64,000 nucleotides of DNA from a virus, in the IMG/VR virus record IMGVR_UViG_3300050821_002963, positions 62,001-126,000 of that record. One strand, written 5' to 3'. This document shows, piece after piece, positions 39,151 through 44,531 of the stretch. The notes under the pieces were generated by a model. That model was not told the DNA's origin and searched no databases. It worked only from the letters and a program-made list of their open reading frames with translations. The first letter of the stretch is position 1. Each line of letters begins with the position of its first letter. A program made the position numbers and the translations under genes.

Positions 39151-39831
39151 ATGAAGCCAACAGCAGTGGTCTTGCTCAGCGGTGGAATGGATTCAGCGGT
39201 ACTTCTCTGGCATGTGAAAGCAAGCGGAAAGGTTCCTTTCGCTCTATCCTTTGACTACGGTCAGAGACACGTCTGCGAACTGGAGAGGGCGGCGGAGTTG
39301 GCGGAGATTGCGGAAGTGTCATGGGTGGCAGCAAACTTGCAGCCTATTCAGCCATTGATTTCGAAGGGCTCCCAGACGGGTGTGGATCTTCCACCGGATG
39401 GACATTACACAGAGATGTCGATGAAGACGACTATCGTTCCGAATAGAAACGCCATCATGCTCTCGATAGCGGTTGGGTTTGCCATCGCGCATGAGATGGA
39501 GCATGTGTACTACGCTGCGCATGGGGGAGACCATACGATCTATCCGGATTGTCGGCCAGAGTTCTTCGATGCTTTCAGTCGGGCAATGATATTGGGGAAT
39601 GGCTGGGACCTAATTAATCTGCACGCTCCTTTCATCCACAGGACCAAAGAAGGGTTGGTAAGGCTTGGGACGGAGCTGGGCGTTCCTTTCGAGAAGACGT
39701 GGTCTTGCTATAAGGGCAGTGGGCAGAACCACTGTGGTACTTGTGGAACATGCGTCGAGAGGCGGGAGGCATTCCAATTGGCGAAGGTTCCGGACCCGAC
39801 TCAGTACGAAGCCGAGTTCGTGAAAAAATAG
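39151..39831 (+). CDS. queC: 7-cyano-7-deazaguanine (preQ0) synthase QueC
   Basis: 226 residues. VVLLSGGMDSAVLLWHVKAS (PP-loop SGGMDS, residues 10-15), FALSFDYGQRHVCELERA and GQNHCGTCGTCVERREAFQ (zinc cysteines) are diagnostic. Converts 7-carboxy-7-deazaguanine to preQ0 with ATP and ammonia. Together with QueD and QueE (50506) it supplies the base for DNA or RNA modification. Confidence 0.92.
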   Translation: MKPTAVVLLSGGMDSAVLLWHVKASGKVPFALSFDYGQRHVCELERAAELAEIAEVSWVAANLQPIQPLISKGSQTGVDLPPDGHYTEMSMKTTIVPNRNAIMLSIAVGFAIAHEMEHVYYAAHGGDHTIYPDCRPEFFDAFSRAMILGNGWDLINLHAPFIHRTKEGLVRLGTELGVPFEKTWSCYKGSGQNHCGTCGTCVERREAFQLAKVPDPTQYEAEFVKK

Positions 39832-39885: not shown

Positions 39886-39958
39886 ACTCGGTGGGCCGGA
39901 TGGTTAGCGTTATCCTTCAAAGATAAAAATGCTGGCCAGTAGTCTTTGTCTACCGAGT
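39886..39958 (+). ncRNA. Y RNA 1 (minimal, hairpin loop CTTCAAA)
   Basis: P1 stem 39886-39892 with 39952-39958 (ACTCGGT/ACCGAGT); conserved GGGCCGGA 39893-39900 facing TTTGTCT 39945-39951; P2 39902-39908 with 39931-39937 (GGTTAGC/GCTGGCC); then TTATC-CTTCAAA-GATAA (39910-39926) and AAAT. This is the Ro60-binding stem and GUUAUC element of Y RNAs (human Y1: CCGAAG, helix, GUUAUC). No tRNA body. The 7-base loop equals the anticodon loop of the UCA tRNA at 40451. Confidence 0.85.
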
Positions 39959-39969
39959 AAGATTTTGTG

Positions 39970-40127
39970 GCGTGGGGCCGGATGTGAATCGTTATCAGAG
40001 GAACTGCTGCCCGCAAGGGCGTGGGGGTTCGAGTCCCTTCCCTCCCGACGAATTGACGGGAGGTGGCGGAAAGGTAGACGCGGCAGTAAGCCGAAAGGCA
40101 TATCGGTTCCAAAAATTAGTCTCACGC
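39970..40127 (+). ncRNA. Y RNA 2 with circularly permuted tRNA-Leu-like body
   Basis: P1 GCGTG 39970-39974 / CACGC 40123-40127; GGGCCGGA 39975-39982; P2 GAATCG 39986-39991 / CGGTTC 40104-40109; TTATC 39992-39996; TTAGTCT before P1'. Inserted tRNA parts are in the order: loop half AGAGGA, stem ACTGC (40003-40007), long variable arm, T-arm with TTCGAGT, acceptor CCTCCCG (40041-40047), 9-base loop, CGGGAGG (40057-40063), TG, D-arm (GCGGAAAGGTAGACGC), stem GCAGT (40083-40087), then GCC-GAAA-GGC. Acceptor and anticodon stems pair perfectly. The class II body and GAG triplet point to Leu. Confidence 0.85.
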
Positions 40128-40148
40128 TTTTAATTCAAGGAGGACGTC

Positions 40149-40460
40149 ATGGATTTTTGCATCTGTAAGGCAAGTAAGGTTTGGTTGCTGAAGAAAGATG
40201 GTTGAATCTTCCGGGTGTCTTTCAGTCGGGCAGTTATCGACTTACTGAGGCGGAAGGTCGGAACGAAGTATCAAATCCAGCGCGGCAAGTTGGTGGTTGG
40301 AAAGAAATTGGAAGAGAAAGAAGAATCTAGTTCTGGATTGTACGTTGTGGCCAGCACGAAGGATGGTAAGCCATTGAGGGTCGCAACGGATAGGCGGGTT
40401 GCGGAAGTGTTGGTGGATGGGCATTACAGATATTTGGCAGAGGGCTTTCTACTCCGGTAG
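40149..40460 (+). CDS. Small protein gene with an in-frame UGA (readthrough or recoding candidate)
   Basis: ATG 40149 has a strong site AAGGAGGACGTC. The frame reads MDFCICKASKVWLLKKDG, then TGA (40203-40205), then IFRVSFSRAVIDLLRRKVG and on to 40460 in the same frame. The part after the stop (GLYVVASTKDGKPLRVATDR etc.) is well-formed coding sequence, and its only alternative start, GTG 40215, lacks a good ribosome-binding site. The UCA tRNA starts at 40451. Either the 18-residue peptide is a leader and the 81-residue protein starts at GTG 40215, or UGA is read through. Product unknown. Confidence 0.5.
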
Positions 40461-40523
40461 CTCAACTGGTAGAGCAGTGGCCTTCAAAGCCGACGGGTGC
40501 GGGTTCAAGTCCCGCCCGGAGTA
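40451..40523 (+). tRNA. tRNA with anticodon UCA (UGA-decoding, Trp or suppressor)
   Basis: Cloverleaf ACTCCGG (40451-40457)/CCGGAGT (40516-40522), discriminator A, CCA encoded. D-arm GCTCAACTGGTAGAGC, loop CTTCAAA with TCA at 34-36, T-arm GCGGG-TTCAAGT-CCCGC. The anticodon stem GTGGC/GCCGA has a G-A mismatch at 27-43. Decodes UGA; charging (Trp versus other) cannot be told. Class I length excludes selenocysteine tRNA. Confidence 0.9.
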
Positions 40524-40547
40524 CCAAAAACTTTAAGGAGAACGAAC

Positions 40548-40598
40548 ATGGCAAACCTTATAGCGAACACTACTGGAAAGGCCCTTGTGCCTCAGTAG
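40548..40598 (+). CDS. 16-residue leader peptide candidate
   Basis: TTTAAGGAGAACGAAC then ATG 40548, MANLIANTTGKALVPQ, TAG. The strong ribosome-binding site on so short a frame suggests a leader peptide ahead of the gene at 40626 or a relic gene start. Translation unproven. Confidence 0.35.
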   Translation: MANLIANTTGKALVPQ

Positions 40599-40625
40599 GT
40601 ACGCTAAACAGAAAGGAGTTTTGCC

Positions 40626-41315
40626 ATGCGCCCAGATATGGGGCGGTTGATTATTGAGGATGGAAGAAGGGGAGACGGAGGGCCAAAGACCTGTTACGAT
40701 AAGATTCGGAGAGTGGGAGAAGACTACGAAAATCTCCCCAGCTTCGAATCCACGAGTCGCCACAGAAAACAGGACAGCAACTCACAAGGCGACAGGCTTA
40801 ACCCTTTGAAGAGGTATTTGGAATCACAAGTTGGTCGGCCTTGGTCGGAAGTATTTTCTGAAATCTGTGCGGTGAACGATAAGCGGACGATTCGCGGTTA
40901 TCATTTGCTAACGCACCTATTTCAGGATGTAATGGTGGATGGGGTTCAGCGCGGAGACATCGGCGGCTATCAGGATTTTAAAGTTGGACCGGACGGGGTT
41001 CTAAGGAAACACGATTGGCGGAAAACTCGTCGGTATAGCCGGCCTGAGAAGAAAAAGCAGCCGAAAGTTTTCAAGCTCGGTAATGGATGGGAGTATCAGA
41101 AGCTGGAAGGTCTCTGGTTTCGGGTTCACTATCGGACGGACGAAACGGTGATTCCAGGACACTTCACAGAACGGACTTTCAGCTACGGGAAGAAAGCGGA
41201 GTTGAAGTATCGGTATTGGATTAACACCCAGGTAAGAACAGATGTGGTCATGGATGTGAAAGTTTCTTGTGGCCAGAAGGACTTGAAAGAGATTAGAAAA
41301 CTTCTGGCTAAGTAA
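40626..41315 (+). CDS. Conserved phage-type protein, function unknown
   Basis: 229 residues; AAAGGAGTTTTGCC before ATG. The middle NPLKRYLESQVGRPWSEVFS followed by IRGYHLLTHLFQDVMVDGVQ is a recognisable conserved block of an uncharacterised family. A beta-rich part with KPKVFKLGNGWEYQKLEGLW follows. Highly basic. It lies between the UCA tRNA and Y RNA 3, so RNA binding is conceivable. Confidence 0.5.
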   Translation: MRPDMGRLIIEDGRRGDGGPKTCYDKIRRVGEDYENLPSFESTSRHRKQDSNSQGDRLNPLKRYLESQVGRPWSEVFSEICAVNDKRTIRGYHLLTHLFQDVMVDGVQRGDIGGYQDFKVGPDGVLRKHDWRKTRRYSRPEKKKQPKVFKLGNGWEYQKLEGLWFRVHYRTDETVIPGHFTERTFSYGKKAELKYRYWINTQVRTDVVMDVKVSCGQKDLKEIRKLLAK

Positions 41316-41321
41316 AGGTTA

Positions 41322-41462
41322 AGACGCGGGCCGGATGTGGTTGGTTATCGCAAACCAAAGATGTACTTGCGGGTAGCTCAGTTGGCAGAGCCCCCTACGT
41401 AGTAGGGTTGACGTGGGTTCGATTCCCACCCTAAACACCGACTGCGAGATTTGTCTGCGTCT
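41322..41462 (+). ncRNA. Y RNA 3 with tRNA-like body in normal order
   Basis: P1 AGACGC 41322-41327 / GCGTCT 41457-41462; GGGCCGGA from 41328; TTTGTCT 41450-41456; P2 GTTGGT / ACCGAC; TATC...GATG hairpin. It contains D-arm GCTCAGTTGGCAGAGC, hairpin CCCT-ACGTAGT-AGGG and T-arm GTGGG-TTCGATT-CCCAC in the usual tRNA order. The apparent acceptor strands (TTGCGGG and CCTAAAC) do not pair over seven bases, so it is not a plain tRNA; here the Y stem sits at the acceptor end. Confidence 0.65.
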
Positions 41463-41469
41463 AAGTTTT

Positions 41470-41543
41470 GCTCTCGTAACTCAGCGGATTAGAGTGTCAG
41501 CCTTCTAAGCTGAAAGTCGTGAGTTCGAATCTCACCGAGAGCA
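41470..41543 (+). tRNA. tRNA-Arg (UCU)
   Basis: GCTCTCG (41470-41476)/CGAGAGC (41536-41542), discriminator A and encoded CCA. Anticodon arm TCAGC-CTTCTAA-GCTGA, TCT at 34-36. T-arm GTGAG-TTCGAAT-CTCAC. Standard class I tRNA reading AGA/AGG, codons that are heavily used in this genome (many AGA codons in its genes). Confidence 0.95.
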
Positions 41544-41552
41544 CCAGCTGTA

Positions 41553-41604
41553 GTAAGGAGGGCCGGCGGTGTTGAAAGGACACGACAGCGACACCCTCCG
41601 TTAC
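41553..41604 (+). ncRNA. Stable hairpin, possible structured RNA or degenerate Y RNA
   Basis: GTAAGGAGGG (41553-41562) pairs with CCCTCC-G-TTAC (41594-41604), with further pairing GGTGT/ACACC inside. It contains GGGCCGGC, close to the Y-RNA core, but no TTTGTCT partner. Not followed by a T-run, so a terminator is unlikely. It lies between tRNA-Arg and the gene at 41636. Confidence 0.35.
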
Positions 41605-41635
41605 AAAGGCTGCTGGTAGTTGACGCAGAAGAACA

Positions 41636-41896
41636 ATGAAACTAACAAAAGGACCATTAGCGGGCTACAAAGTTGAGATGGCGGAGGGCGAAAAGACTCG
41701 GCAGTATCAGGAAGACGTGGATAAGCTGGTCAACCTGATGGGTTACGAGTGGGCGTTGGTCACGGACTTGAGTAGAATAGGCGACTTCTACACGGATGAG
41801 ACAGATGTGGAGATGCTGTCTCTCAAGTTGGGATTTCCGGTAACACGGAAAGACTATATGTGGGAAGTGGCCATGAGAACGAGGAAAAGTAATTAA
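41636..41896 (+). CDS. Small hypothetical protein
   Basis: 86 residues, preceded by a weak ribosome-binding site (CGCAGAAGAACA). LMGYEWALVTDLSRIGDFYT then LSLKLGFPVTRKDYMWEVA is a compact alpha/beta sequence. Lies between RNA genes. No family recognised. Confidence 0.5.
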   Translation: MKLTKGPLAGYKVEMAEGEKTRQYQEDVDKLVNLMGYEWALVTDLSRIGDFYTDETDVEMLSLKLGFPVTRKDYMWEVAMRTRKSN

Positions 41897-41903
41897 AAGT
41901 TTC

Positions 41904-42039
41904 TGCTGGGGCCGGACTGAATCGGTTATCACAGGTTCGAATCCTGTCTCTCAGCTCGAAAGAGTCTATGAGAGACAAGGCTACAGTCGGTGGCAACATC
42001 GAAGGGTAGCGTTTCCGATTCGAAGTATTTGTCTCAGCA
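41904..42039 (+). ncRNA. Y RNA 4 with T-arm and closed acceptor stem
   Basis: P1 TGCTG 41904-41908 / CAGCA 42035-42039; GGGCCGGA 41909-41916; P2 TGAATCGG 41918-41925 / CCGATTCG 42015-42022; TTATC 41926-41930; TTTGTCT 42028-42034. Directly after TTATC comes a T-arm (ACAGG-TTCGAAT-CCTGT), then CTCTCA (41948-41953) pairing TGAGAG (41969-41974) across a loop that holds CTC-GAAA-GAG. The following part that should be the D-arm is atypical. Confidence 0.8.
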
Positions 42040-42046
42040 TAAGAGA

Positions 42047-42257
42047 TTGCATAGGCCGGAGTTGTGCGTTACCTCAATACATAGAAGGTAGCCGGCTCTT
42101 AAGTTGGCTACACACTGGGTTCTGCCGGCAGTTATTCCGGTGGGCAGGGATAGCCTCCTGTAATTGGCTAGCAAGAGCCAACATCAAAAGTGGAAACCCT
42201 TGCGGTCGGCCTCTTATCGGAGACTGGCTTTTCGCACAGCAATATTTGTCTATGCAA
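42047..42257 (+). ncRNA. Y RNA 5, long form (211 nt) with unassigned insert
   Basis: P1 TTGCAT 42047-42052 / ATGCAA 42252-42257; AGGCCGGA 42053-42060; P2 TTGTGCG 42062-42068 / CGCACAG 42233-42239; TTACC...GGTAG hairpin in the place of TTATC...GATAA; TTTGTCT 42245-42251. About 140 nt of structured insert follows, including GTTGGCT/AGCCAAC long-range pairing and two D-arm-like hairpins (GTAGCC...GGCTAC and TAGCC...GGCTA). No T-loop recognised. Confidence 0.65.
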
Positions 42258-42267
42258 ATGAGTTGGG

Positions 42268-42348
42268 TGCCCATTAGGGTTAGCGTAGCCTGGTTTACGC
42301 GCTGGGACGCCAGAGACGTTGGTTCAAATCCAACACCCTGATGGGCAT
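42268..42348 (+). tRNA. tRNA-like element without an anticodon loop
   Basis: D-arm GCGTAGCCTGGTTTACGC and T-arm GTTGG-TTCAAAT-CCAAC (42318-42334) are canonical and the acceptor TTAGGGT (42274-42280)/ACCCTGA (42335-42341) pairs. TGCCCAT (42268-42274) with ATGGGCA (42341-42347) prolongs it to about 14 pairs. The anticodon arm is only CTGG-GACG-CCAG (12 bases instead of 17), so it cannot decode. No CCA. Pseudo-tRNA, decoy or processing element. Confidence 0.6.
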
Positions 42349-42359
42349 CCTTTAGTTTC

Positions 42360-42485
42360 AGAACGGGCCGGATGAGTTGGGTTATCTACCGAATAGATAC
42401 GTGGGTTCGAATCCCACCGCCGTGGTTCCAAGACGGCGTGGCAGAGTGGCTAATGCGCCCCAGCTTGGTTTCTTTTGTCCGTTCT
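42360..42485 (+). ncRNA. Y RNA 6 with circularly permuted tRNA-Ser-like body
   Basis: P1 AGAAC 42360-42364 / GTTCT 42481-42485; GGGCCGGA 42365-42372; P2 GAGTTGGG 42374-42381 / CCCAGCTT 42459-42466; TATC...GATA hairpin (42383-42399) as the variable arm; T-arm GTGGG-TTCGAAT-CCCAC (42401-42417); CGCCGT (42418-42423), loop GGTTCCAAG, ACGGCG (42433-42438); D-arm GCAGAGTGGCTAATGC. P2 occupies the place of the anticodon stem, so the RNA is a closed-acceptor cloverleaf, as in bacterial YrlA RNAs. Confidence 0.85.
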
Positions 42486-42494
42486 AAAAAGTTT

Positions 42495-42639
42495 GAGTGG
42501 GCCGGATGTGAATCGTTATCTTGTAATCTGCGGGTCGGTGGTTCGAATCCATCTAACGTGAATAAAGTAACGTTATAGCTCAGTTGGCAGAGCAGCAGAA
42601 CCCCGAAAGGGGATTTCGGTTCCAAATATATGTCCACTC
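42495..42639 (+). ncRNA. Y RNA 7 with circularly permuted tRNA-Thr-like body
   Basis: P1 GAGT 42495-42498 / ACTC 42636-42639; GGGCCGGA 42499-42506; P2 GAATCG 42510-42515 / CGGTTC 42617-42622; TTATC 42516-42520. Then TTGTAA, stem TCTGC (42527-42531), GGGTC, T-arm GGTGG-TTCGAAT-CCATC, TAACGT (42554-42559), 10-base loop, ACGTTA (42570-42575), TA, D-arm GCTCAGTTGGCAGAGC, A, stem GCAGA (42595-42599), CCCC-GAAA-GGGG. Re-ordered, it is a near-perfect tRNA-Thr with loop CTTGTAA (UGU). Confidence 0.87.
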
Positions 42640-42653
42640 TTAAGGAAAGGAAT

Positions 42654-42723
42654 CTGGCGGGCCGGTTAGCTACCGTTATCCTCAGGCGATAAAAATGGTG
42701 GCGATGTAGTTTATGTCTGCCAG
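42654..42723 (+). ncRNA. Y RNA 8 (minimal, hairpin loop CTCAGGC)
   Basis: P1 CTGGC 42654-42658 / GCCAG 42719-42723; GGGCCGG 42659-42665; P2 GCTACC 42669-42674 / GGTGGC 42697-42702; TTATC-CTCAGGC-GATAA (42676-42692), AAAT; TTATGTCT 42711-42718. The P2 bases differ from those of Y RNA 1 at several pairs while pairing is kept. The loop resembles that of tRNA-Leu(CAG). Confidence 0.85.
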
Positions 42724-42730
42724 GTAAATT

Positions 42731-42799
42731 TGGTTGGGGCCGGAGTGGGTTGATTATCCTGAAAAGATAAAAGTCGACCTACGTTATATGTCTAAGCCA
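42731..42799 (+). ncRNA. Y RNA 9 (minimal, hairpin loop CTGAAAA)
   Basis: P1 TGGTT 42731-42735 / AAGCCA 42794-42799; GGGCCGGA 42737-42744; P2 GTGGGTTGA 42745-42753 / TCGACCTAC 42774-42782 (nine pairs); TTATC-CTGAAAA-GATAA (42754-42770); TATGTCT 42787-42793. The loop is identical to the anticodon loop of tRNA-Phe(GAA). Confidence 0.85.
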
Positions 42800-42806
42800 T
42801 GAAGTT

Positions 42807-42896
42807 TCAGTGGGGCCGGAGCTGGTTGGTTATCCCATCAAATGAGAAGCGGACTACAATCCGCTTATTATCGACTAGCATTATTTGTCTCACTGA
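42807..42896 (+). ncRNA. Y RNA 10 with an extra anticodon-arm-like hairpin
   Basis: P1 TCAGTG 42807-42812 / CACTGA 42891-42896; GGGCCGGA 42813-42820; P2 GCTGGTTG 42821-42828 / CGACTAGC 42872-42879; TTATC 42830-42834; TTTGTCT 42884-42890. The TTATC hairpin is imperfect (partner GAGAA) and is followed by GCGGA-CTACAA-TCCGC (42849-42864), shaped like an anticodon arm with a 6-base loop. Its end is 28 bases before the rsr start codon. Confidence 0.82.
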
Positions 42897-42923
42897 TTAA
42901 AAAGAAAGAATGGAGAAAAGAAA

Positions 42924-44531
42924 ATGACGTCTTACTTGAACACAGCAGCAAAGAGAGCTGGAGTAGGGCCGGCGCAGTCGGAACCTTTGAATGAAAGACA
43001 AGTTCAGAACTCGGCTGGAGGTTATTCCTTCCCAGTCGATATGTGGGTGCAGTTGGACAGGTTCTTGATTCTCGGTACGGAAGGCGGGTCGTACTACGCC
43101 AGCGAGAAAAAGCTCACGGACAAGAACGTTAAGTCCATAAGGGACTGCATCAAGACAGACGGGTTGCGAACAGTAGCCCGCGTAGTTGAGATTTCGGATG
43201 CCGGTAGGGCACCAAAGAACGACCCGGCACTCTTCGTCTTGGCACTTTGCTCCAAGGCGGATGACCAGAAGACAAGAGCTGCGGCTCTGGATGCGCTACC
43301 AAAGGTGGCAAGAATTGGTACGCACCTTTTCCACTTCGCAGAGTTCAGAACTCAGCTCGGCGGTGGCTGGGGTAAGGGCATGAAGCGGGCCATCTCGAAC
43401 TGGTATCTGGATAGAAGTCCGATGTCCCTCCAGAACCAGTTGGTCAAGTACCAGTCGAGAGATGGCTGGAGCCATAAGGACCTGCTCAAGTTGGGGCATG
43501 TGAATCCTTCGGAAGTGGCACCGGAGAAGCGGGTGGCCTTGGCGTGGGCTGCGGATAAGGCCCCACTGGAATTGTCTCAAGTACCTTTGATTGAGGCGTT
43601 CGAACGGGCCAAGACTCTGAAAGAAAAGTCTCAGGAGAAAGAGCTCATTCAGTTGATTACCCAGTATGAATTGACGAGAGAGATGGTTCCGACAGAAGCT
43701 TTGAACTCTGCTGCTGTGTGGGAAGCTCTTTTGGTCAAGATGCCGATTACGGCTTTGATTCGTAACTTGGGGAACATGACCAAGAACGAATTGCTCAAGC
43801 CAATGTCGGATGCGTGCAAGACGGTGGTCAATAACCTTACCAGCAAGGAAGTTCTGAAAGCTGGTAGAGTGCATCCAATCCAGTTGCTTGTGGCACTGAG
43901 AACTTATGCGTCCGGGCACGGGATGAAGAGTCGTGGAGAAGGTTGGAAGCCTGTCTCAAAGGTGGTGGATGCTTTGGATGAGTCTTACTATCTGGCTTTC
44001 GCCAACGTCGAACCTACGGGCAAGAGATGGTACTTGGGCCTGGACGTTTCCGGTTCCATGTCTGGCGGAAGCATTGCTGGAAGTCCACTGACTCCCTGCG
44101 AAGGGGCAGCCGCGATGAGCATGGTTACGGCCAAGCTGGAAGAAGACTATGAAATCATGGCCTTCGACCAAGGCATCAGGAAGCTTCCTATCACGCCGAA
44201 GATGCGTTTGGACGATATCATGAAGCACACCAAAGACATCAACGGTGGCGGAACAGACTGTGCTTTGCCAATGATAGAAGCGGCGAAGAGAAAAATTCCG
44301 GTGGACATGTTTGTGGTCTACACGGATAGCGAGACGTGGGCTGGGCACATTCATCCGCCCAAGGCGTTGGAGCAGTATAGACAGAAGATGGGCATTCCAG
44401 CCAAGTTGGTAGTTTGTGGAATGCTCGGCAATAACTTTTCCATTGCAGACCCCAATGATGCGGGCATGTTGGACGTGGTAGGTTTTGATACCAACGTGCC
44501 CTTGTTGTTGGCGGACTTTGCAAAGAATTGA
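42924..44531 (+). CDS. rsr: Ro60/Rsr protein (TROVE plus vWA domains)
   Basis: 535 residues; AATGGAGAAAAGAAA before ATG. The N-terminus is a TROVE domain: QVQNSAGGYSFPVDMWVQLD, RFLILGTEGGSYYASEKKLT and DPALFVLALCSKADDQKTRA are its diagnostic blocks (HEAT-repeat ring). The C-terminal vWA domain has the MIDAS motif (WYLGLDVSGSMSGGS), then GGGTDCALPM and FVVYTDSETWAG. Ro60 proteins bind Y RNAs and misfolded RNAs, and in bacteria work with PNPase in RNA decay. Located directly after ten Y RNA genes. Length matches bacterial Rsr. Confidence 0.95.
   Translation: MTSYLNTAAKRAGVGPAQSEPLNERQVQNSAGGYSFPVDMWVQLDRFLILGTEGGSYYASEKKLTDKNVKSIRDCIKTDGLRTVARVVEISDAGRAPKNDPALFVLALCSKADDQKTRAAALDALPKVARIGTHLFHFAEFRTQLGGGWGKGMKRAISNWYLDRSPMSLQNQLVKYQSRDGWSHKDLLKLGHVNPSEVAPEKRVALAWAADKAPLELSQVPLIEAFERAKTLKEKSQEKELIQLITQYELTREMVPTEALNSAAVWEALLVKMPITALIRNLGNMTKNELLKPMSDACKTVVNNLTSKEVLKAGRVHPIQLLVALRTYASGHGMKSRGEGWKPVSKVVDALDESYYLAFANVEPTGKRWYLGLDVSGSMSGGSIAGSPLTPCEGAAAMSMVTAKLEEDYEIMAFDQGIRKLPITPKMRLDDIMKHTKDINGGGTDCALPMIEAAKRKIPVDMFVVYTDSETWAGHIHPPKALEQYRQKMGIPAKLVVCGMLGNNFSIADPNDAGMLDVVGFDTNVPLLLADFAKN

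What the first reader, a model, noticed from the sequence alone, without database searches (positions are those of the whole stretch)
40149..40523. In-frame UGA in a short gene directly before a UCA tRNA gene
The frame from ATG 40149 (strong AAGGAGG site) continues past TGA at 40203 into an 81-codon coding stretch that lacks its own good start. The tRNA at 40451-40523 has anticodon UCA and would read UGA. Most genes here stop at TGA, often as ATGA overlaps, so full recoding is excluded, but regulated readthrough is possible: a gene that senses its own suppressor tRNA.
Basis: partly seen in the sequence, partly recalled or inferred. Interest (0 to 1): 0.75.

Follow-up and report, generated by a model that had tools for sequence, protein, structure and literature searches.

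The report
Phage gene gated by suppressor tRNA
A small phage gene carries a stop signal near its start that only the phage's own unusual tRNA can read through, and relatives in other phages use the same trick with other stop signals and matching tRNAs, which suggests a translation switch and a reason why ordinary-code phages carry such tRNAs.

Summary
The ATG 40149 frame crosses UGA 40203 and ends inside a UCA-tRNA gene, the only suppressor tRNA found in this 131,524-bp unclassified phage contig. Homology to Myxococcus phage Mx1 spans the UGA (35.7% identity over residues 6-103, E 3e-6). I examined 29 loci of this gene family (28 genomes, about 12 lineages): 27 have an early in-frame stop (25 UAG, 1 UGA, 1 UAA). 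A tRNA matching that stop was found for 24 of 27. In Acinetobacter phages the codons between UAG and the first internal ATG evolve as protein (pN 0.13, pS 0.74). The window's readthrough product folds confidently, with a whole strand encoded before the UGA. The two exceptions are informative: in one, an early UAG sits in an overlapping upstream gene; in Mx1, two adjacent genes need a +1 shift at CAUU and a tRNA with AAUG in its loop lies next to them. Best reading: a gene translated only when the phage's own suppressor tRNA is present. Readthrough is well supported; sensing or timing is inferred; the protein's function is unknown.

The parts
40137..40143 (+). ribosome-binding site AAGGAGG, 5 nt before ATG
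   Evidence: sequence
40149..40202 (+). first 18 codons (MDFCICKASKVWLLKKDG), before the stop
   Evidence: aligned to Mx1; predicted strand at residues 8-16
40203..40205 (+). in-frame UGA, codon 19; next base A
40206..40457 (+). 84 codons after the stop; phrog_29342 family (whose model lacks the N-terminus)
40458..40460 (+). terminal UAG of the frame, inside the tRNA gene (tRNA bases 8-10)
40451..40526 (+). tRNA with anticodon UCA and encoded CCA; the only suppressor tRNA that ARAGORN finds in the 131,524-bp contig
39971..40126 (+). Y-RNA-like element with a permuted tRNA-like insert, directly upstream of the gene (context, not part of the switch)
42924..44531 (+). Ro60 gene (TROVE + vWA_Ro60), downstream of the array (context)

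Best explanation
40149-40457 is one gene. Its translation starts at ATG 40149, halts at UGA codon 19 unless the phage's own UCA tRNA (encoded directly downstream and overlapping the gene's 3' end) inserts an amino acid, and then yields a 103-residue protein. The family as a whole is gated like this: an early codon that ordinary host tRNAs cannot pass (UAG, UGA, in one case UAA, and in Mx1 probably a CAUU +1 shift) is paired with a phage tRNA that can. The protein therefore appears only after the phage tRNA has been transcribed, processed and charged. Shown by sequence: the layout, the homology across the stop, the protein-like evolution of the blocked codons, and the match of stop to anticodon. 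Inferred: actual readthrough, the inserted residue, delayed or tRNA-dependent expression, and the purpose (timing, or a check that phage tRNAs are intact). In the window and in the Klebsiella phages the gene's end overlaps the tRNA's 5' end, so cutting out the tRNA must cut the gene's message; a competition between the two products is possible but untested.
For: (1) Mx1 homology covers residues 6-103, across the UGA. (2) 27 of 29 family loci examined have an early in-frame stop after an ATG: 25 UAG, 1 UGA (window), 1 UAA (L031). (3) Matching suppressor tRNA found for 24 of 27: 23 of 25 UAG loci with CUA, 1 of 1 UGA with UCA, 0 of 1 UAA. (4) In 8 Acinetobacter-type genomes the 24 codons between UAG and the internal start have pN 0.132, pS 0.741, like the rest of the gene (0.127, 0.718); one of the 8, L041, has no ATG there (one search shows VIRFTF, the others MRFTF; rates). 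(5) Genome-wide census: in each of 4 UAG-type genomes the family gene is the only uncontested UAG case of 'SD-ATG, stop within 25 codons, long open frame without a near start'. (6) Base after the early stop is A in 19 of 22 loci and G in 3, never U or C. (7) Model of the readthrough product: mean pLDDT 88.3, strand 8-16 before the UGA and strand 19-24 from the UGA residue on. (8) Three T4-like phages without the gene have no CUA, UCA or UUA tRNA at the equivalent tRNA cluster (3 of 3). (9) L034: no stop in the family gene, but an overlapping upstream Pth2-like frame has UAG at codon 3, and its contig has a CUA tRNA. (10) Mx1: family gene and the adjacent peptidyl-tRNA hydrolase gene both read through when one CATT is taken as a four-base word; a tRNA whose anticodon loop holds AATG lies just downstream.
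Against: No expression data. The window gene has no close relative (none in viral contigs), so its UGA is seen in one assembled sequence only. GTG 40215 lies 4 codons after the UGA and could start an 81-residue product. Three early-stop loci have no matching tRNA found: Slickus01 (whole genome scanned), L033 (none in about 139 of 181 kb by ARAGORN and none by Rfam in the whole contig) and L031 (34-kb fragment). L033 has an ATG directly after its UAG. L034 has a CUA tRNA but no stop in the family gene itself. In two loci the CUA tRNA is far away (L032 about 24 kb, L034 about 39 kb). The Mx1 loop is not unique: 7 of 166 tRNAs scanned have an unpaired pair closing the loop, and sequencing error could fake a shift. 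The window tRNA has a mismatch at 27:43.
Confidence: 0.85

Rival explanations
1. Internal initiation: the real protein starts after the stop (GTG 40215 here; the internal ATG used by annotators in Acinetobacter phages), and the ATG-stop is a chance or leader peptide.
For: Where public records annotate the gene at all, they start it after the stop (KP13-26 and KP2025 do not annotate it). L033 has ATG right after UAG.
Against: Codons between UAG and the internal ATG are as constrained as the rest; conserved Cys and Y/W-G-I positions lie there; the internal GTG form here would lose the first strand; few internal starts have a ribosome site.
Confidence: 0.07
2. Upstream-peptide control: ATG-stop is a regulatory leader, ribosomes reinitiate downstream, and the tRNA match is incidental.
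For: The blocked frame is very short in most relatives (2-6 codons).
Against: Does not explain protein constraint between stop and internal start, nor the stop-anticodon match in 24 of 27 loci, nor the 18-codon pre-stop part here with a counterpart in Mx1.
Confidence: 0.05
3. Pseudogene or sequencing error in the window only.
For: Single metagenomic sequence; no close relative.
Against: The same gene family carries early stops with matching tRNAs in other lineages; strong ribosome site, intact frame on both sides, confident fold.
Confidence: 0.06
4. Selfish retention: the early stop makes a useful gene dependent on the tRNA so that the tRNA gene is not lost; readthrough is real but there is no sensing or timing.
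For: Dependence is expected from the layout; gene and tRNA are usually close together.
Against: Not distinguishable from regulation with sequence alone.
Confidence: 0.3
5. The UCA tRNA mainly serves UGG (Trp) codons by wobble, and UGA reading is a by-product.
For: Anticodon UCA can read UGG as well as UGA (established wobble rules, recalled).
Against: Relatives use CUA tRNAs, which read UAG; the tRNA sits on the gene's end.
Confidence: 0.1

Closest known systems
Stop-codon recoding in phages with suppressor tRNAs (genetic codes 15 and 4; e.g. crAss-like phages, PMC9523058 start of abstract in a listing, PMC10879173 passages)
   Same: A phage-encoded suppressor tRNA lets a frame with in-frame stops be translated in a host with the standard code.
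   Different: There many genes are recoded. Here the census finds one such UAG gene per genome in 4 of 4 genomes, at one early codon, in phages that otherwise use the standard code; UGA is a normal stop in the window genome.
'Non-functioning' suppressor tRNAs in standard-code Zeta crAss-like phages (PMC12386605, passages)
   Same: Suppressor tRNA kept in phages without recoding; that paper asks why.
   Different: The present layout offers one testable answer, a dedicated gene; whether it applies to those phages was not tested.
Autoregulatory recoding such as the prfB (RF2) frameshift (recalled)
   Same: An early stop or shift gates the full-length product on the state of decoding.
   Different: The gate here would be a phage tRNA, not a release factor.
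T4 Cef, 'modifier of suppressor tRNAs' (PF24050, phrog_1354)
   Same: Weak profile similarity of the window protein only (E 0.2-0.4).
   Different: 7 of 7 relatives scanned do not hit it.

Membership tests
phrog_29342 | profile match | tested here: met
   Window E 0.01; 7 of 7 relatives scanned hit it, E 0.0045 to 1.7e-53. The model starts after the early stop.
T4 Cef (PF24050 / phrog_1354) | profile score above curated cut-off | tested here: not met
   11.8 bits against 27; none of 7 relatives match.
Phage with a reassigned stop codon (code 4, UGA to Trp) | reassigned stop absent as a terminator | tested here: not met
   TGA ends 21 of 63 open frames of 250 codons or more.
Phage suppressor-tRNA recoding | matching suppressor tRNA in the same genome | tested here: met
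   Window UCA; 24 of 27 early-stop loci overall.
Phage suppressor-tRNA recoding | readthrough product made in infected cells | not testable with these tools
   Needs proteomics.
Selenocysteine insertion | tRNA-Sec shape (long variable arm) | tested here: not met
   The ordinary tRNA model fits full length with a short variable loop.
Selenocysteine insertion | SelA, SelB, SelD in the genome or host | not tested
   Not searched for.

The most novel reading that the evidence does not exclude
Probability: 0.45. Interest if true: 0.93.

Novelty: new variant of a known kind. Interest (0 to 1): 0.85.

Why it matters
Some standard-code phages carry suppressor tRNAs without obvious targets, a puzzle stated in print (PMC12386605). 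A single dedicated, early-stop gene per genome, found in cultured phages of Acinetobacter, Klebsiella and Pseudomonas, makes that question testable at once. If right, it adds a way to control a gene by a phage tRNA, explains why annotators truncate or miss this gene, and, in Mx1, points to natural use of a four-base codon.

Tried and rejected
Selenocysteine: rejected on tRNA shape. Whole-genome UGA reassignment: rejected on stop usage. Cef membership: a lead from weak window hits that the relatives do not support. Direct search for close relatives of the window gene in viral contigs: none; plasmids: only an insignificant hit; bacterial genomes with alignment A3: none. A family-wide alignment was too divergent for a scan, so sub-alignments were used (later scans gave no new contigs). 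Structure comparison gave no PDB match (best Foldseek E 1.0; best Z 2.7); the best BFVD match is an 80-residue protein (E 5.9e-4). Slickus01: whole genome scanned for CUA, UCA and UUA tRNAs, none convincing; a tRNA-like remnant directly upstream of the gene was seen by eye. The first coding-score census was too strict for some genomes and was replaced; that second filter leaves out the window gene itself because of GTG 40215. In one search the window contig has other candidates (1 UAG, 1 UGA), Acj9 and G005 each have one UAA candidate, and Mx1 has 1 UAG and 3 UGA candidates, none of them the family gene; I did not follow these.

At first I read the repeated GGGCCGGATG elements as permuted intron-exon units; the neighbouring Ro60 gene and the (recalled) Y RNA motif made Y RNA-like elements the better reading. 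The Rfam YrlA score there (31.0 bits) is not specific: two ordinary tRNAs in L019 score 30.7.

Full report
What is there. The window is part of a 131,524-bp unclassified virus record with phage-type genes such as a terminase-like protein. The frame from ATG 40149, behind AAGGAGG, runs 18 codons to UGA 40203, then 84 codons to UAG 40458. The UCA tRNA at 40451-40526 overlaps the end of the frame. It is the only suppressor tRNA that ARAGORN finds in the contig.

Homology crosses the stop. A tblastn search of 50,697 phage records with UGA read as a residue found one hit, Myxococcus phage Mx1, 35.7% identity over residues 6-103, E 3e-6. Before the stop the two share C, K, W, L, K and D. The UGA lies opposite Lys in Mx1. 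Using Mx1 as query gave 52 records; KARL-1 and KP13-26 as queries gave 71 and 51. These lists overlap; I fetched 13 of the records.

Relatives carry early stops. In 12 of the 13 fetched phage records an ATG is followed within 2 to 6 codons by in-frame UAG: Klebsiella phages, Synechococcus phage BUCT-ZZ01, Acinetobacter phages, Pseudomonas phages, Alishewanella phage Slickus01. Mx1 is the exception. Three viral-contig scans added 15 loci: 13 with UAG, 1 with UAA (L031), 1 with none (L034). L036 has the same record length as Acj9 and a near-identical match, and is counted as the same genome. Total with the window: 29 loci, 28 genomes, by my grouping about 12 lineages; 25 UAG, 1 UGA, 1 UAA, 2 without an early stop in the conserved frame (L034, Mx1).

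The tRNA matches the stop. CUA tRNAs were found for 23 of the 25 UAG loci, most within 2 kb, one 24 kb away (L032). In L035 the CUA anticodon was read by eye in a tRNA with an insertion of about 90 nt. The window has UGA and UCA. Not found: Slickus01 (whole genome), L033 and L031. L033 has an ATG directly after its UAG; L031 is a 34-kb fragment with the gene near its edge. In the five joined genomes that have a suppressor tRNA (window, KP13-26, Acj9, Astolliot, G005) there is exactly one, and it matches; the other two joined genomes, Mx1 and Slickus01, have none. As a control, Acj61, T4 and Aeromonas phage 31 lack the gene at the equivalent locus and lack CUA, UCA and UUA tRNAs there (3 of 3; only 10-14 kb of each was scanned).

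The blocked codons are protein-coding. In eight Acinetobacter-type genomes the 24 codons between UAG and the internal start chosen by annotators have pN 0.132 and pS 0.741; the rest of the gene has 0.127 and 0.718. The AlphaFold2 model of the window product from a 16-sequence alignment has mean pLDDT 88.3; strand 8-16 is encoded before the UGA and the next strand begins at the UGA residue. In a genome-wide census the family gene is the only uncontested UAG case in each of four genomes (KP13-26, Acj9, Astolliot, G005). The base after the early stop is A in 19 of 22 and G in 3 of 22. From recalled literature, a following purine helps nonsense suppression.

The exceptions. In L034 the family gene starts cleanly but overlaps an upstream Pth2-like frame that reads ATG-CTG-UAG; its contig has a CUA tRNA about 39 kb away. 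In Mx1 the ATG frame of the family gene ends at UAG, and the conserved frame lies +1; reading CATT as one step gives a full product. The adjacent peptidyl-tRNA hydrolase gene has the same need and also opens when CATT is read as one step (one search was one base off). A tRNA called Ile(AAT) directly downstream has a 9-nt loop AGTAATGAC, or 7 nt if an A.C pair closes it. AAUG would pair with CAUU. This is suggestive, not proven: 7 of 166 tRNAs scanned have an unpaired pair closing the loop.

Mechanism. The most economical reading is conditional translation: the protein is made only when the phage's suppressor tRNA is available and charged. That stop type and position differ between lineages (UAG at codon 3-7, UGA at 19, UAA at 4, frame in Mx1) while the gating remains argues that the gating itself is selected. 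What the protein does is unknown: no PDB fold match. Neighbours in several genomes deal with RNA: Ro60 here and a TROVE protein in Mx1, peptidyl-tRNA hydrolase, release-factor-like proteins in Acinetobacter phages. Timing, tRNA-integrity sensing and tRNA retention cannot be told apart by sequence.

Literature. Searches in the held library found recoded phages and the statement that some standard-code phages carry 'non-functioning' suppressor tRNAs (PMC12386605, passages), but no description of a single tRNA-gated gene in what I saw. PMC13037316 and PMC10879173 were read as passages only; the other papers only as search listings. Absence is limited to those searches and that open-access library.

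Surroundings. The gene lies inside an array of ten Y-RNA-like cores at 39.9-42.9 kb, upstream of a Ro60 gene. Several inserts look like permuted tRNAs. This is reported in passing; it was not shown to be linked to the switch.

Noticed in passing
window 39890-42900: Ten copies of a GGCCG(N8-14)TTAYC core, 8 of 10 closed by a complementary stem with a TGTC/AGTC-type motif in the script, upstream of a Ro60 gene: a likely array of Y RNAs. Relative L004 (Ro60 52% identical) has seven such cores upstream of its Ro60 (shuffled window mean 0.58, most 4).
   Followed up: partly
window 39967-40130, 41905-42040, 42355-42490, 42493-42640: Inserts of these elements look like tRNAs in permuted order (3' half before 5' half), as in bacterial YrlA (recalled); Rfam YrlA scores 31 bits at 42509-42626, below cut-off and not specific.
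   Followed up: partly
window 39890-39955 and 42650-42800: Elements without a large insert carry anticodon-like loops (TCA, GAA, CAG) on TTATC/GATAA-type stems; read by eye.
   Followed up: no
L034:5616-5692: tRNA called with a four-base anticodon (TTGT) about 2.3 kb downstream of the family gene; possible frameshift suppressor, target unknown.
   Followed up: no
L035, directly upstream of the gene (G008:C1:911-1072): CUA tRNA with an insertion of about 90 nt after the anticodon arm.
   Followed up: no
G005:C1:51842-52183 (-): Pth2 match with one in-frame TGA inside the matched stretch.
   Followed up: no
window 39151-39831: QueC (queuosine biosynthesis) gene directly upstream of the RNA array.
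   Followed up: no
L006:2461-2851: Permuted tmRNA (Rfam tmRNA_permuted 92.8 bits) next to a Ro60 relative.
   Followed up: no
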